A stretch of DNA of 64,000 nucleotides, taken from assembly GCA_013373015.1 (NCBI GenBank), contig JABXIQ010000012.1, forward strand, positions 1 to 64,000. Direction: 5' to 3'. This DNA comes from Kangiellaceae bacterium (GTDB lineage: Bacteria > Pseudomonadota > Gammaproteobacteria > Enterobacterales > Kangiellaceae). The first letter of the stretch is position 1, and every line of letters begins with the position of its first letter. Position numbers and translations under genes: made by a program. Under the pieces are notes generated by a model. It worked only from the letters and a program-made list of their open reading frames with translations. It was not told the origin of the DNA and searched no databases. This document shows positions 30,291-38,806 of the stretch, one piece after another.

Positions 30291-30947
30291 ATGAGCAAAT
30301 TTCGAGTTCGCTATCAAACTTTCGAGATCGATGATCTCGATATTCATGTACGTAGTCTGCGTGATAATCAGCAATTCTTTGACCAAGATAAAATAGCTGA
30401 GAGCTTAGGGATATCATCTGCCCAATGGCCTATATTTGGAATAGTATGGGCTTCTGGGGAGGTTTTGGCGCGTTTAATGGCTCGGCAGGATATTGTTGGA
30501 AAAAGAATTTTAGAGGTCGGGTGCGGCCTTGGTCTAGCTAGCTTGGTGTTAAATGAGCGTTCGGCTGACATTACTGCTACTGATTATCATCCAGAAGTAG
30601 AGGCTTTCCTTAAAATTAATGTCTCTTTAAACTCTGGTGATGAAATTCCTTTTAAGCAATCTGATTGGCATGATTTAGATACGGGGTTAGGCAAATTTGA
30701 TTTAGTTATTGGTAGTGATTTACTGTATGAAGTTGAACATATTGAATTATTGTCACAATTTATAGAGTTACACGCTAAGTCAGAGTGCGAAGTAATAGTG
30801 GTAGATCCTGGGCGAGGTAATCATGCCAAATTTAGCAAAGCCATGGTGAAACTTGGTTTTGAACATAGCCAGCGTAAGTTAGATCAGGAAGAGCAGTCTC
30901 ATACAGATTTTAAAGGGCGGATATTGAGTTACATCCGTAAGCTTTAA
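30291..30947 (+). CDS. Methyltransferase of the METTL21/Nnt1-like family
   Basis: A 218-aa SAM-dependent enzyme. Motif I is LEVGCGLGLASLV (from residue 74), the acidic end of beta-2 is ATDYHPEV, and the post-II segment GSDLLYEVEH resembles the D-x-x-Y motif of Methyltransf_16 enzymes, which mostly methylate protein lysines. The substrate is unknown. The gene overlaps its convergent neighbour by 4 bp at the stop codons. Confidence 0.8.
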   Translation: MSKFRVRYQTFEIDDLDIHVRSLRDNQQFFDQDKIAESLGISSAQWPIFGIVWASGEVLARLMARQDIVGKRILEVGCGLGLASLVLNERSADITATDYHPEVEAFLKINVSLNSGDEIPFKQSDWHDLDTGLGKFDLVIGSDLLYEVEHIELLSQFIELHAKSECEVIVVDPGRGNHAKFSKAMVKLGFEHSQRKLDQEEQSHTDFKGRILSYIRKL

Positions 30948-32224
30948 TTGGTTTTTTCTTTGAGCCAATCTTTCATTTGATACCACCAATAGCTCAATTG
31001 TGCTGCGGCTGGGCCAAATACTCCGCCATTCCATGGTAATCCCCAAGGTTGGAATTGTTTGTAGGTATCTCCTTTGCCCGAGATGGCTTCAGCTAAGATT
31101 TCACCTGCGGCAGTGGTTGGTGCAACACCATGACCACCAAAGCCAATACCGTACCAAACACCAGGTGCGATCTCGCCAATTTGTGCCATTTGATGGCGAG
31201 CGTAGGCCATCCAGCCTTGCCAGTCGTATTCAACCTTGATGCCTTCCAATTCAGGGAATACTTTGAGCAAATCTTTTTTTAACAAGTGATCAAGATTTTT
31301 TGGCTTATTTGTATTGGCATGAATACGACCACCCCAAAGAATACGTGTGTCTTTCAAAGGGCGGTAATAATCGAATGCAAAGCGCGTATCGTAAATGGCG
31401 GCATTGGTATTAATAAAATCTTTTAAGCGTGCACCAAGCGGCTCAGTGGCCATAACGTAGGTTGCAATGGGCAAGATGGAGCGTGAAATTGGCTTAAAGA
31501 TATCGCCTAAGTATCCGCCGCCAGAAACTACAATATTCTTTGCTTTAATGATGCCATGTGAGGTTTTGACGATTTTTGTCGCAGATTGATAGTCAATATC
31601 TACAACGGTGCAGTCTTCAAAAATTTGGCCGCCTTGTTTTATGATTTCGCTGGCAATCCCTAATGCGTAATTCAAGGGGTGGAAGTGCATGGCGTTTGGT
31701 TCGAACAAGCCACCATAATAGCGTTCACTATTGATATGTTGTTTTAACTCCTCGGGCGAAATATAGCTCCATTCAACGCCCATCTTATCGCGCATAAAGG
31801 CTTGTTCGCTATGTAGTAATTGTTGGTCTTTAAACCAATTAGCCCAGATCACACCTTCATCAACGAGGTCACAATCAATTTCATACTGCTTTACACGATA
31901 GCGAATTAAGTCCACCGCAGCTTTGGTTAGTTGGTATAAATCATGAGCCTTCTGCTCACCCACTTGTTTCACCAAAGCTCTTGGTCCTAACGAATAGCCC
32001 CCAAACACAAAACCACCATTGCGGCCAGAACAACCCCAACCAACTTTGTGCTTTTCAACAATCGCAATACTGTTATGACCACGCTCGATCAGGCCTAAAG
32101 CCGTCATTAAACCTGCGTAACCAGCGCCAACAATACAAGTTTCAACTTCTAAATTGTTAGGAGGCTCACTAGGTTCAAGTTGATAATTGGTTGTTGCAGC
32201 GTAGTAACTTTTGGGGTAATCCAT
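30944..32224 (-). CDS. FAD-dependent amine/amino-acid oxidase (DAO family, PuuB-like)
   Basis: A 426-aa protein. The dinucleotide-binding GAGYAG is at 33-38 (CIVGAGYAGLMTALGL), followed by GWGCSGRNGGFVFGGYS, a hallmark of the DadA/gamma-glutamylputrescine oxidase/glycine oxidase group, and a C-terminal GFGGHGVAPTTAAGEILAE FAD-contact segment. The substrate (a secondary amine such as gamma-glutamylputrescine, or an amino acid) is not determinable. No puu neighbours are present. It is divergent from the 183/728-aa operon. Confidence 0.88.
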   Translation of the reverse strand: MDYPKSYYAATTNYQLEPSEPPNNLEVETCIVGAGYAGLMTALGLIERGHNSIAIVEKHKVGWGCSGRNGGFVFGGYSLGPRALVKQVGEQKAHDLYQLTKAAVDLIRYRVKQYEIDCDLVDEGVIWANWFKDQQLLHSEQAFMRDKMGVEWSYISPEELKQHINSERYYGGLFEPNAMHFHPLNYALGIASEIIKQGGQIFEDCTVVDIDYQSATKIVKTSHGIIKAKNIVVSGGGYLGDIFKPISRSILPIATYVMATEPLGARLKDFINTNAAIYDTRFAFDYYRPLKDTRILWGGRIHANTNKPKNLDHLLKKDLLKVFPELEGIKVEYDWQGWMAYARHQMAQIGEIAPGVWYGIGFGGHGVAPTTAAGEILAEAISGKGDTYKQFQPWGLPWNGGVFGPAAAQLSYWWYQMKDWLKEKTN

Positions 32225-32454
32225 ATCAATTTATAATTAATAAATAATTTGAAGAGATTATCACTTTTATTTTTTTTGATAAACCATTAAAAAGAGTTAT
32301 TAATCAATAAGTTTTGTTTCTATCCTATAAAACACTTTAAAATCTTTGCAAATTTGCATTGACACAGTTCCTTTTTTATTGGTTTTATATATGCTAGTGT
32401 TTTTTTTGCAGAAAAGTTCTGCTACAAGGAAACGCAATAAAGGAGTATTGCAAT

Positions 32455-33006
32455 ATGGAGAAAAAACGAAGTGCCGCTTCGTCCGCAGTTTATGGCACTT
32501 TAAAAAATGTGGAAACATCACGAGCTGTTCAAGTTCGACCTGTTCAAGCAAATATACCTCAAGAGCTATCAGCTAATATCAACATCAGGGTGGTTCCTGG
32601 GCGTGACTTTGAGTTTTATCCTATTAAGAAAAAGTGTAAATCTAGGACTGGCGTAGAAAAAAAAGTTGCCGAATCTTTAGATTTACCTGTTTCATTAAGA
32701 GATAAACTTAAGTCAGTCAACAAGCAAGTGATTGATTGGCTAGCTGAAGATCAGGCTAATACAAAGTTGTTTCTAGCCCAGCCAGTGGTTGCACTTGCTA
32801 AAGCTGGCGTTGAGTTAACACGAGTTGAGCAAAAGCATCTTTTAAGAACTCATCAGGAGGTCAATGATGCAATGGTTGTTGCACCGGGTGTGAATGTAGA
32901 ATTGCTGGATACCAAAGTATATAAGCGTGGAAAAATAGGAAAAATCAAACCAACCAAACCCAATAGTGATCAGGATGATCACTCTGTTGGATGTGCAAAG
33001 GAGTAG
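32455..33006 (+). CDS. Unrecognised 183-aa protein, first gene of the P47-like operon
   Basis: I do not recognise this family with confidence. There is no signal peptide or membrane helix. Residues 1-45 are low-complexity and polar. The middle holds a basic Cys-containing patch (PIKKKCKSRTGVEKK), then VIDWLAEDQANTKLFLAQPV, ALAKAGVELTRVEQKHL and a C-terminal Lys-rich tail ending near HSVGCAKE. The D-x(n)-LFLAQPVVALAKAGVEL stretch faintly recalls precursor proteins of the nitrile-hydratase-leader type, a weak impression only. A strong Shine-Dalgarno (AAAGGAG) precedes the ATG. The next gene's Shine-Dalgarno overlaps this stop, so the two are coupled. Confidence 0.75.
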   Translation: MEKKRSAASSAVYGTLKNVETSRAVQVRPVQANIPQELSANINIRVVPGRDFEFYPIKKKCKSRTGVEKKVAESLDLPVSLRDKLKSVNKQVIDWLAEDQANTKLFLAQPVVALAKAGVELTRVEQKHLLRTHQEVNDAMVVAPGVNVELLDTKVYKRGKIGKIKPTKPNSDQDDHSVGCAKE

Positions 33007-33012
33007 CAAATT

Positions 33013-35199
33013 ATGGGTTTAGATAGAACTGCGGGATTTGATATGCTGGTGCAAATCTCTGAAAATGAAATTAATAACCAGTTAGCTACTGCTTTCTTAG
33101 CAGGTGACATTATTCCTCCTTCGATGGTGGTGCCTATTAATACGGGAGGCGTAAGCGGTAATGCGGATATTATTTTTAATACTCCTATTGCTGATTTAGA
33201 CCGACCTAGAGCTCAAATGGGCATTACTATTCCGTTTGCAAATTCGCAGCTTGATATTACTACGCCATTGTCCATTACCTTATCGCCATTAGGAGGAACT
33301 ATTACTATTGTTGATAGTATCGGTATGGTTACAGAGGGTTCTACTCAAATCTGTCGTATGGACTTTACTTCTGGAGCGCCAACGGTAAATGTTGATTTTG
33401 ATGCTGCTTCCGAAGTACTACTTGGGCCTTTGCTGGCTGCTGCGGGTTTAACTATTGCCCAAGCTCAGAATATGATGGCAGGTGTTGTGCTTAATGAATT
33501 GCAAACCAACATCCGTGAAATTGATTTAACGCCACCTATTGGGGTTTTTGATGATACCGATACGACACAACCTTTCGATATAAATGTGACTACAGTTAAT
33601 GACACCAGTGCTGCAGACAGAGACTGTATTACGTTTGGTGTAAGAATGATGAGTGATGGAGGGGGTAATATTAACAATATCACTAGCAGCATGATTCCTC
33701 CTGGTGGTCAGTCGTTAGTTATGATGAGTAACTTCTGGCTGTTAGCAAGGGTCATGCGGCCCAGAATCGCTACATCATTGGGACGACCTGTAACAGATTT
33801 TGATACACCACTACGTTTAAATCGCTCGATTCCAGCTCCTGGGGGGCAAGGACGATTACGTGCTTTAGAAGCTAGGGTGATTGGTAATCGAATTGCGGTT
33901 ACAGGAAGGGCTACTGATTCTGGTACTGGTTGGTCGGCTGAGTCAAACTTTACATTTTTTATTGATATTGGGTTATCTGGCGGTGCAATAACTGTAACTG
34001 CTACTACGCCGAGTGTTGATACAGATGTCGATCTGGAGTGGTGGGTTTGGTTAGCTTCGCTTGGTTTAGGGGCATTGTTCGGTGGAATTGTCGGAGCTAT
34101 TGTCGCGGCAATTGTATTAGCTATAGTAGAAGCGGTTGCAGAGGGTATTGCAAACGGCTTGATCACGGATGGTATTACAGGTGCTTTAGGCTCTTTACCA
34201 GCGATACCTTTGGGGCCTATTGGCGGTGGGTTAACATTGGATAATATTATTTTGGACGATTTAGAACTTCGTTCTTCCATTGTCCATTCACTTTCTGTGC
34301 CCATTAAAACTCAAGGCAGTTTCCGCTCGAATAATAATTTTGCTTTAGACTTAGATACTGGAGTAATTAGCAGTAACACTCGTGTTAGCTCCGATTTGGT
34401 TTGGCTTGCAAATCAACGCTTAGAAGCTCATGCATCAGCAGGTTTGACAACCACAGGTGTTTCTTATCGATCTCTCACTCCTGTTCAAGTGTCTAGAATG
34501 CCTTTAACGTCGTCATATTTGCCTTTAGCTGCAATACCATTTACGTTCCCGCCATCGCATTGGTTCTTGCCGCATAACGAAGTGGTATTTGGGGTAAAAA
34601 CAAGTGAAGGCCGCTTTGCTAAAGTGAGAGCTTGGCGCGATTTAACTGATGGCGGTGAATTGAATATTGACTGGATTACTTTCGATACGGCAGTTGCTTC
34701 TCTTGATATCGCTACTCGTTGGAGAGTTCTGGAGCGTGGAGAGGTCACTGAATATATCACTGATGATTGCTCATTTTGTCGTTCATCACCTGTGAGTCGC
34801 TGTGGGATCTTTGAAGCATGGCCAAGACTAATGGCCTTCCCTGTGGATATGGAGTGGTGTCTCTGTGGACATGTTTTGGAAGACGAGCATGGTGAAATTG
34901 AATATGAATCTGGAACAATTTCATATAAAAAAGTAGGTCGTAGATTGTATCTAGAAACTGAGTTAGGTCAGGATTTCAAATGCGAATTATGCGTTAGTGC
35001 TATAGATGCCAGAGGCAGGGAACTGTTTACTTGTATTGAAATTAATCAACCTGGGATTGATGAGCAGTGCAGAAAATGTAGTGACAAAGCTCCTCAATAC
35101 GATATTAATTTCCTTGATGTTAAGCCTGAGCTTGCTCAATGGCGAAAGTTAATACCTTATAAAATTGCCGAACAGCAAGAGGAGGATGTTATTTATTGA
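33013..35199 (+). CDS. 728-aa candidate TULIP/P47-like protein with hydrophobic segment and CxxC cluster
   Basis: No signal peptide. The start AGFDMLVQISENEINNQL is reminiscent of TULIP-fold proteins of the clostridial P47/OrfX type, where a Trp/Phe-Asp-Val/Met strand leads into an Asn-rich helix; this is inference. Beta-rich regions surround a long Gly/Ala/Ile/Val segment (~residues 341-385: WWVWLASLGLGALFGG, then GAIVAAIVLAIVEAVAEG) that could insert into a membrane. The C-terminal ~150 residues contain Cys at 586, 589, 597, 616, 618, 657, 660, 674, 686 and 689, including three CxxC pairs, like a metal-binding module. AAAGGAG overlaps the previous stop. It ends at a perfect terminator. Confidence 0.8.
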   Translation: MGLDRTAGFDMLVQISENEINNQLATAFLAGDIIPPSMVVPINTGGVSGNADIIFNTPIADLDRPRAQMGITIPFANSQLDITTPLSITLSPLGGTITIVDSIGMVTEGSTQICRMDFTSGAPTVNVDFDAASEVLLGPLLAAAGLTIAQAQNMMAGVVLNELQTNIREIDLTPPIGVFDDTDTTQPFDINVTTVNDTSAADRDCITFGVRMMSDGGGNINNITSSMIPPGGQSLVMMSNFWLLARVMRPRIATSLGRPVTDFDTPLRLNRSIPAPGGQGRLRALEARVIGNRIAVTGRATDSGTGWSAESNFTFFIDIGLSGGAITVTATTPSVDTDVDLEWWVWLASLGLGALFGGIVGAIVAAIVLAIVEAVAEGIANGLITDGITGALGSLPAIPLGPIGGGLTLDNIILDDLELRSSIVHSLSVPIKTQGSFRSNNNFALDLDTGVISSNTRVSSDLVWLANQRLEAHASAGLTTTGVSYRSLTPVQVSRMPLTSSYLPLAAIPFTFPPSHWFLPHNEVVFGVKTSEGRFAKVRAWRDLTDGGELNIDWITFDTAVASLDIATRWRVLERGEVTEYITDDCSFCRSSPVSRCGIFEAWPRLMAFPVDMEWCLCGHVLEDEHGEIEYESGTISYKKVGRRLYLETELGQDFKCELCVSAIDARGRELFTCIEINQPGIDEQCRKCSDKAPQYDINFLDVKPELAQWRKLIPYKIAEQQEEDVIY

Positions 35200-35207
35200 G
35201 TTTAACC

Positions 35208-35241
35208 AAATAAAAAGCCAGCAGATGCTGGCTTTTTATTT
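35208..35241. terminator. Bidirectional terminator between convergent genes
   Basis: AAATAAAAAGCCAGCA-GA-TGCTGGCTTTTTATTT, a perfect 16-bp palindrome serving the 728-aa gene. It overlaps the stop codon of the minus-strand gene ending at 35240. Confidence 0.88.
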
Positions 35242-35638
35242 AGAACTTTGAAATGGAACCTAAGTGATGTAAAGCTCGACAGCTATAAATAAGTGTTACA
35301 TCAAAGTTATTTGTCCCAATTCCATTGTTTAGGTCAACGGCTGAAATAACATCTACGTTTAAGCTAGTTACCGAGTGGTAATAAGATGAACCGTAAGGAG
35401 GATATTGACCGTTATCAATATTAGGGATTAATGTTTTACATTTATTCTTGGCAAGATTTTCTAGGCTGGCTCCGTTGATACAAGTTGCTAAACTGAAGCT
35501 GCCACAGTCAATGGTCATTGTGCTATTTGTTGCATAATAATAATAGGGATCATTATGTGAACCATGATTGTACTCGTCGGCGTAGGCTGCAGATGAAATA
35601 CCAAAAGCGAGAATTAATAGACTAAGTATATTTTTCAT
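35240..35638 (-). CDS. Small exported Cys-containing protein, family unknown
   Basis: A 132-aa protein with a signal peptide (cleavage after AYA, ~residue 20). The mature part starts His/Tyr-rich (DEYNHGSHNDPYYYY) and has four Cys: CGSFSLATC, NKC and IYSC. Its end is a beta-like FDVTLIYSC strand. No family recognised. It partly resembles the exported protein at 37640-38137 (CG-F start, Cys-x-x-Leu, Asn/Gly/Pro-rich middle, FD-hydrophobic end), so the two may be paralogues flanking the TPR sensor. Confidence 0.7.
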   Translation of the reverse strand: MKNILSLLILAFGISSAAYADEYNHGSHNDPYYYYATNSTMTIDCGSFSLATCINGASLENLAKNKCKTLIPNIDNGQYPPYGSSYYHSVTSLNVDVISAVDLNNGIGTNNFDVTLIYSCRALHHLGSISKF

Positions 35639-37639: not shown

Positions 37640-38137
37640 TTACTTTATAACTGTTTTTATACTGGTGTATTTATATACGCAGTCAAATTTGATGCCCAGG
37701 CTGGTATCATAACTTGAGTGGTGTTGATTACTGGCATTAAATCCATTGGTAAACTCAGCTGGGCCGAGAAATCTTGGCAGTAATCCCTGAGAGTACAGAC
37801 CTGGGTTTAAAGCAGCAAGGGCATTACAAGTTGTTGTCCCTGCCATAAAAGCCATTTGGAAGTGGTCAAAATCACCACAGGTTTTACTCGTTGTAGTAGT
37901 GGTATTAGTACAACTTGAATAGCTGTTAGTTGTCCCTGTTTTATCAGCTATCCATTGATCATAATCAAAGTAGATAGAGTGATTGTTGTAAACTTTTTCT
38001 AGCTGTGACTTTGATAGATCAAATGTTGCCGCGATAGACATTGTATCATTTGGATAAACTAAGTTTAATGGAAACTCATGCGACACTGCCGTTTGCACAA
38101 AAATCAAGCAGCCAAGTGCGGCAAATTTTTTATTCAT
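37640..38137 (-). CDS. Small exported Cys-containing protein, family unknown
   Basis: A 165-aa protein with a signal peptide (cleavage after AVS, ~residue 19). The mature chain begins HEFPLNLVYPNDTMSIAA and contains a Thr-rich stretch (SCTNTTTTTSKTC), then MAGTTTCNALAALNPG and a final FDCVYKYTSI. No family is recognised. It is convergent with the TPR sensor and loosely similar to the exported protein on the sensor's other side. Possible roles include secreted ligand, adhesin-like or inhibitor protein; none is supported by a motif. Confidence 0.68.
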   Translation of the reverse strand: MNKKFAALGCLIFVQTAVSHEFPLNLVYPNDTMSIAATFDLSKSQLEKVYNNHSIYFDYDQWIADKTGTTNSYSSCTNTTTTTSKTCGDFDHFQMAFMAGTTTCNALAALNPGLYSQGLLPRFLGPAEFTNGFNASNQHHSSYDTSLGIKFDCVYKYTSIKTVIK

Positions 38138-38269: not shown

Positions 38270-38806
38270 TTAATGACTGGTTTGCATGATTTTAATAGGT
38301 ATTGCAGTTTCTACATCGTCACTGAGCAACTTGAGCTGCGGGTGGCGGCTTTTCATCATGTTATGAATATTATCAATCTCATCGGGTTTGGTGTCTATAA
38401 GCAATAAAAAGTTACCATCATCGACATACTTAAAATAGCGTTTGAGCTTATAATTGTGCTTTTGCAATCCGATAAAACCACCAAGCCATACTCCAAATCC
38501 TGTGCAAAATAATACCGTCAACACAAATCCTGCCGTTCCATAATAAGCTTCTATGGAACTCGCAAAAATAGCACTAAAGGCTATGGCAAGCCCAATGAGT
38601 AAACCGATAATTAACCCTCGAATAGCGCTGTGAATAATATTCGTTCGATACCAAGCGTTGGCTGCATTCAGGCCATGACGCAATACTTTACCGTCTTGAT
38701 TTGAGACTACATGTAAATCTTCATCTTTAACTCCATGATTTTGTAGGTCATGATAGGTATCTTCAAGATGATATAGGTGATCGGATTCATACAATAAACG
38801 ACTCAT
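38270..38806 (-). CDS. Two-TM membrane protein of unknown function
   Basis: A 178-aa protein. The cytoplasmic N-terminal ~55 residues (LYHLEDTYHDLQNHGV, LHVVSNQDGKVLRHG) resemble the ferredoxin-like half of 'general stress/DUF1269-type' proteins. Two Gly-rich transmembrane helices follow (~62-82, GLIIGLLIGLAIAFSA; ~92-112, GFVLTVLFCTGFGVWLGGF), then a C-terminal ferredoxin-like half (FLLLIDTKPDEIDNIHNMM). The function is not known. Transcribed alone with its own terminator. Confidence 0.7.
   Translation of the reverse strand: MSRLLYESDHLYHLEDTYHDLQNHGVKDEDLHVVSNQDGKVLRHGLNAANAWYRTNIIHSAIRGLIIGLLIGLAIAFSAIFASSIEAYYGTAGFVLTVLFCTGFGVWLGGFIGLQKHNYKLKRYFKYVDDGNFLLLIDTKPDEIDNIHNMMKSRHPQLKLLSDDVETAIPIKIMQTSH

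What the first reader, a model, noticed from the sequence alone, without database searches (positions are those of the whole stretch)
32455..35199. Two-gene unit with a candidate TULIP/P47-like membrane-active protein and a CxxC-rich tail
Seen: a coupled gene pair with strong Shine-Dalgarno sites (the second overlapping the first stop) and a perfect terminator. The 183-aa product has no recognised family. The 728-aa product lacks a signal peptide yet has a ~45-residue Gly/Ala/Ile-rich segment (~341-385) and ten Cys in its last ~150 residues, three as CxxC pairs. The N-terminus recalls the clostridial P47/OrfX TULIP proteins. Inferred: a lipid-binding or pore-forming effector released without a Sec signal, with the small protein as chaperone, adaptor or immunity partner. 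This is the best candidate for an undescribed system in the window.
Basis: partly seen in the sequence, partly recalled or inferred. Interest (0 to 1): 0.7.

Follow-up and report, generated by a model that had tools for sequence, protein, structure and literature searches.

The report
Mobile small–large protein gene pair
Two neighbouring genes of unknown function travel together between bacteria and archaea; the larger protein has a greasy stretch that may touch membranes, and the smaller one looks like its dedicated helper, but what they do is still unknown.

Summary
In detail: a 183-aa gene (32455-33006) is followed 6 nt later by a 728-aa gene (33013-35199). The second ribosome site abuts the first stop, and a strong stem-loop closes the unit. 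The last 143 residues of the large protein hold ten cysteines (three CxxC).

The pair is a real conserved module. Including the window, I examined eight full-length large proteins, from bacteria of at least two phyla, Methanosarcina and haloarchaea. All eight have a small ORF directly upstream (gap -1 to 13 nt). Four form a close group (55-65% identity) that mixes a proteobacterium, actinobacteria and an archaeon. The pair was not found in 17 same-genus genomes.

A hydrophobic segment occurs in all eight; the cysteine pattern only in the close group. No family library or solved chain matches the large protein. The small protein has a sub-threshold NHLP/Os1348-clan hairpin (3 of 8 members; best E=2.5e-6).

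P47/TULIP was not supported by sequence and could not be tested by structure, because the prediction tool was off.

Best reading: a mobile two-gene unit in which the small protein is a dedicated partner or chaperone of a Sec-less, membrane-interacting large protein. The role is open.

The parts
32440..32445 (+). Shine-Dalgarno AAGGAG of the small gene, 9 nt before its ATG
32455..33006 (+). small gene, 183 aa: NINIR-type block in the N-terminal third and NHLP/Os1348-like helical hairpin (about residues 91-130); Cys 61 and 180
32998..33003 (+). Shine-Dalgarno AAGGAG of the large gene, in the last codons of the small gene and abutting its stop
33013..35199 (+). large gene, 728 aa, no family match; homologues in bacteria and archaea
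34039..34128 (+). codons of the conserved hydrophobic segment, residues 343-372 (30 residues without charge), preceded by a DVDLE motif
34330..34692 (+). middle domain, about residues 440-560; also found in a protein of different make-up in L020
34768..35079 (+). cysteine-rich stretch, residues 586-689 (10 Cys); the pattern is missing in the four distant relatives
35208..35241 (.). 15-bp stem-loop, likely terminator, possibly shared with the convergent ORF 35240-35638

Best explanation
A horizontally mobile two-gene unit. Shown: in all eight members examined the small gene comes directly before the large one, spaced as for translational coupling. Inferred: the small protein, through its NHLP-like helical hairpin and its NINIR-type strand, is a dedicated partner (chaperone or adaptor) that binds the large protein as it is made. 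It would keep the hydrophobic segment (343-372) shielded and deliver the large protein to its site. The large protein, without a Sec signal, would then interact with lipid or membrane through that segment; its C-terminal part would serve binding or stability, with the cysteines of the close group holding metal or disulfides. The most likely role is in envelope or lipid handling, or in competition with other cells.
For: Pair in 8 of 8 full-length members examined, small gene first, gap -1 to 13 nt. For three of the four distant members the upstream frame ranks 4, 6 and 14 of 1353 frames with a hairpin score built only from the close group, which itself holds ranks 1-3. The fourth (L021) is tied in through L005: its small protein is 32% identical to that of L005 over 298 aligned positions, E 3e-28. 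Hairpin: NF038399 E=2.5e-6 (L004), 3.6e-4 (L003), 0.062 (window). The hydrophobic segment is present in all 8 (best 19-residue means 2.05-2.79), with no hydrophobic N-terminus in any. Mobility: the Methanosarcina member is 64% identical to the window's, as close as the two actinobacterial ones (63 and 55%). One of 295 genomes searched in the order has it, the window's own. Same-genus loci L066 and L067 carry other genes between two of the same flanking genes.
Against: No structure, so neither complex formation nor membrane contact is shown. The 30-residue hydrophobic stretch is too short for two full membrane spans and could be a buried core helix. The small proteins differ much: the two haloarchaeal-type ones have a helix-hairpin-helix domain, and two others are only about 110-150 aa. 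NF038399 matched 3 of 8 members, each time below its curated cut-off; the other five had no match. In the plain HMM search the distant partners were not significant (best E 0.17). The hairpin score of L021 came from outside the gene and counts for nothing. The strand block ranked only 54 and 231 of 1353 in L019 and G296. The scored blocks were chosen after seeing the alignment.
Confidence: 0.45

Rival explanations
1. TULIP-type lipid carrier with a small partner, built like the OrfX1:OrfX3 complex: the hydrophobic helix is the buried core helix of a tubular lipid-binding domain, and the protein carries lipid rather than inserting.
For: Conserved N-terminal GFDxLVQxSExExN block and long hydrophobic stretch; a small upstream gene paired with a large one, as OrfX1 pairs with OrfX3 (passages of PMC13030710). 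A faint alignment of residues 332-407 to LmeA-family TULIPs (probability 2.4%).
Against: No PF06597 match, no solved chain. The LmeA score is not significant, and its positive control (LmeA against a single DUF4403 sequence) failed, so the test has no power. No internal duplication in the splits tried.
Confidence: 0.25
2. Antibacterial effector (large) with immunity protein or effector chaperone (small).
For: Sporadic, mobile, no Sec signal, a hydrophobic segment and a cognate small partner.
Against: No secretion genes were recognised beside the pair, though only part of the flanks was scanned by profile. The small proteins have no membrane-like segment (best 19-residue means 0.58-1.54), unlike many immunity proteins to pore formers (general knowledge). 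Members include archaea.
Confidence: 0.12
3. Peptide natural product (RiPP) system: the small protein is a precursor with an NHLP-type leader.
For: NHLP-clan hairpin; Cys at or near the C-terminus of the small protein in the four close members.
Against: No modifying enzyme or peptidase-transporter among the flanking genes scanned. No GG in the window's small protein. In the close group the hairpin is followed by another conserved block, and the large protein matches no enzyme.
Confidence: 0.06
4. Anti-phage defence module that acts at the membrane.
For: Two-gene, sporadic, in a variable slot, once on a plasmid, once near DUF6119 and DUF5677 genes.
Against: No PADLOC match for either window protein. 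No defence family among the Pfam matches of the window flanks; the flanks were not scanned with PADLOC.
Confidence: 0.1

Closest known systems
NHLP / Os1348-clan hairpin (NF038399, TIGR03793) and IniB N-terminal domain (NF038175)
   Same: Hairpin with the F..DP..AL..AGV.L pattern; NF038399 matches 3 of 8 members, E down to 2.5e-6
   Different: Below curated cut-offs; no modification genes recognised; embedded in proteins of about 110-323 aa paired with a large protein
P47/OrfX proteins (PF06597), especially the OrfX1:OrfX3 pair
   Different: No PF06597 or PDB sequence match; no orfX-p47 cluster; the small protein shows a helical-hairpin signature rather than a TULIP one
LmeA (PF11209), bacterial TULIP lipid-binding family
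   Same: Only a faint alignment over the hydrophobic segment and what follows
   Different: Not significant; the member described by Levine has an N-terminal membrane anchor before its TULIP domain (passages of PMC6791001)

Membership tests
Clostridial P47/OrfX (PF06597) | Match to the PF06597 profile | tested here: not met
   Not among the families matched by any of the 8 members at E<=10, within HMMER's filters; the window's own genome also negative at E<=0.001
Clostridial P47/OrfX (PF06597) | Sequence similarity to solved P47/OrfX chains | tested here: not met
   phmmer gave only a ribosomal protein at E 0.5; profiles gave no chain at E<=10. That P47/OrfX chains are in the PDB copy is assumed from papers, not checked
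TULIP superfamily | Long helix wrapped in a twisted antiparallel sheet | not testable with these tools
   Structure prediction switched off; hhalign against LmeA inconclusive, positive control failed
Clostridial P47/OrfX (PF06597) | Cluster of orfX1-3 and p47 genes | tested here: not met
   No PF06597 match in the window's genome; by reading the ORF lists only the pair recurs among the loci
NHLP/Os1348-clan RiPP precursor | Profile score above the curated cut-off | tested here: not met
   Best 27.5 bits against a cut-off of 40; 5 of 8 members without a match
NHLP/Os1348-clan RiPP precursor | Modification and export genes nearby | tested here: inconclusive
   None among the window flanks scanned; in relatives only part of the flanks was scanned by profile
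Known anti-phage defence system | Match to PADLOC profiles | tested here: not met
   Both window proteins: 0 families at E<=0.1

The most novel reading that the evidence does not exclude
A family of mobile two-protein units shared by bacteria and archaea in which a hairpin related to peptide-precursor leaders has become a separate protein that guides a large, Sec-less, membrane-active partner: a leader acting in trans.
Probability: 0.2. Interest if true: 0.75.

Novelty: new variant of a known kind. Interest (0 to 1): 0.5.

Why it matters
The large protein matches no family in the libraries searched, yet the module is paired in every full-length member examined and has crossed between bacteria and archaea at up to 65% identity, which points to a self-contained function. 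If the small protein is a dedicated guide built on an NHLP-type hairpin, it extends that domain beyond peptide natural products. If the large protein proves to be a TULIP, it adds an archaeal and bacterial branch to lipid-binding proteins known mostly from eukaryotes and toxin-linked clusters.

Tried and rejected
Rejected or empty: phage and viral homes (no relative). Plasmid searches gave only the Haloplanus plasmid for the large protein (none in 46) and none for the small protein. PF06597 in 198 genomes of the phylum of G564 and 229 of the own class: no match, nothing fetched. TULIP by hhalign against LmeA and one DUF4403: inconclusive, the positive control failed. Internal duplication of the large protein: none significant in the splits tried. 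PDB for the small family: one chance-level hit, E 0.91. PHROGs: only weak matches of the small protein, E 0.076 and 0.27.

Dropped before the count of 8: G523 (E 4e-4, one 113-residue piece over the hydrophobic segment; not followed up) and G656/L020 (shares only the middle domain; its upstream gene is a different 310-aa protein). The start of the L003 small gene is uncertain (I used 3123 or 3126), as are those of L007, L019 and L021. On checking, the rank-12 hairpin score of L021 proved to lie before its gene; I no longer count it.

Full report
Observation. The second AAGGAG abuts the first stop rather than covering it. The promoter/terminator scanner found no sigma-70-like site in front of the pair (7 sites in the region, 9.0 expected by chance) and does not list the stem-loop; the stem-loop nevertheless folds far better than shuffles. 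The cysteine and hydrophobic features are as described.

Relatives. A scan of genome contigs gave three close pairs: L002 Methanosarcina sp. KYL-1, L003 an Actinomycetes MAG and L004 Nocardioides donggukensis; their large proteins are 55-64% identical to the window's. Distant members: L005, plasmid pCBA1112-02 of Haloplanus rubicundus; L007/L022 in G296, same phylum as the window; L019 in G714, phylum of Nocardioides; L021 in G1031, phylum of Methanosarcina. Their large proteins are 19-29% identical to the close group; L005 and L021 are 49% identical to each other. Naming the window's bacterium a proteobacterium and G1031 a haloarchaeon is my inference from gene content and from these identities; no call names them. 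Rarity: 1 of 295 genomes in the own order, with none of the 17 other same-genus genomes listed there; 3 of 299 in the phylum, counting own and the unfollowed G523; 3 of 396 in the phylum of G564, counting G564 and the domain-only G656; 2 of 344 in the phylum of G562, counting G562; 1 of 48 in the order of G296, G296 itself. The first four are samples, and the single-protein search finds close relatives better than distant ones.

The pair. In all eight full-length cases an ORF ends -1 to 13 nt before the large gene, on the same strand. In the close group the partners align over nearly their whole length (E 4e-77 or better against a profile that includes them). For the distant ones that profile search was not significant (E 0.17 for G296, 1.6 for G714; the true partners of L005 and L021 were not matched in the part of the list shown). 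A 40-residue hairpin score built from the close group places three of the four upstream frames at ranks 4 (G296), 6 (L005) and 14 (L019) of 1353 frames; ranks 1-3 are the close members, and other frames hold ranks 5, 7-11 and 13. Rank 12, L021, is spurious: the hit lies before the gene. In 5000 shuffles of the same protein the score was reached 0 (L007), 30 (L005), 71 (L019) and 1107 (L021) times. The strand block was reached 5 (L005), 11 (L021), 231 (L019) and 941 (L007) times. In L019 the block lies after the hairpin rather than before it. L021's partner is tied to the family through L005's: 32% identity over 298 aligned positions, E 3e-28. The blocks were chosen after seeing the alignment, so these figures lean towards the reading.

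What the small protein resembles. NF038399 (Os1348 family, NHLP clan) matches L004 at 2.5e-6, L003 at 3.6e-4 and the window at 0.062, always over the hairpin and always below the curated 40 bits; the other five members have no match. The IniB N-terminal domain matches L003 and L004 more weakly, and two NHLP leader models match L004. Os1348 itself is an 85-aa protein of Pseudomonas sp. Os17 whose loss lowers antibiotic activity and whose crystal structure suggests a dimer (abstract and passages of PMC7726476). [quoted passage not shown] I therefore read the hairpin as an interaction module, not as proof of a peptide product. The partners in L005 and L021 add an N-terminal helix-hairpin-helix domain.

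The large protein. No match above noise in Pfam, PHROGs, NCBIfam, PADLOC or PDB. The alignment suggests three parts. Residues 1-430 carry the conserved start and the hydrophobic segment after a DVD-type motif. A middle domain at 440-560 recurs in a protein of different make-up in L020 (E 1e-7). The C-terminal part carries the cysteines. All ten are kept in three of the four close members and nine in L004; in the distant members only position 586 is a cysteine, in L005 and L021. The close group also has 2-4 cysteines in the small protein, whereas the distant ones have 0 or 1. This could mean a shared metal site or disulfide, but the four close members are related, so the coincidence may have been inherited once.

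P47/TULIP. [quoted passage not shown] OrfX1 binds the N-terminal domain of OrfX3 (passages of PMC13030710); orfX-p47 clusters in other bacteria are described in PMC7020563 (passages). The window's pair shows none of the sequence signs of that family. Levine reports that P47 and OrfX2 gave no significant HHsearch hits except to each other, so a missing sequence match does not exclude the fold. With structure prediction switched off the fold question stays open.

Setting. In two same-genus genomes the window's oxidoreductase gene (30944-32224) and the membrane-protein gene (38270-38806) have homologues about 3-4 kb apart, with other genes between them and no match to the pair (L066, L067). In L068 only the oxidoreductase was matched; in L069 the oxidoreductase, peptidase, pseudouridine synthase and membrane-protein genes were matched in another arrangement. 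The place looks like a variable slot. GC is 0.404 for the small gene and 0.427 for the large one against 0.393 for the window, which is not decisive.

Conclusion. The unit is real, conserved and, by its spread, mobile. Its most likely logic is a small dedicated partner plus a large membrane- or lipid-interacting protein. Steps shown: pairing, order, close spacing, hydrophobic segment, lack of a Sec-like start, sporadic spread. Steps inferred: binding, shielding, delivery, membrane contact, role.

Noticed in passing
L020:5546-7753 (-): A 735-aa protein of another architecture shares only the middle domain (about profile positions 429-557) and has a different upstream gene, so this domain moves on its own.
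   Followed up: partly
window 33708-34304 (-); L002 8894-9532, L003 4323-5069, L004 8750-9445 (-): Long antisense ORFs overlap the large gene in all four close members; probably a by-product of composition, but shared.
   Followed up: no
L004:1445-6452: Genes for DUF5677, DUF6119 and a weak XisH-like protein stand upstream of the Nocardioides pair, a look of a variable island.
   Followed up: partly
L005:11405-11917 (+): A hypothetical protein 0.9 kb downstream of the haloarchaeal large gene scores highest of the non-close frames for the NINIR-type block; may be chance.
   Followed up: partly
window 35240-35638 and 37640-38137 (-): Two small ORFs with signal-like N-termini (by eye) flank a 586-aa TPR protein next to the pair; neither has a convincing Pfam match.
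   Followed up: no
L019:1-1502 (-): PPE-like gene near the actinobacterial member, suggesting a mycobacterium (recalled pattern, not tested).
   Followed up: no
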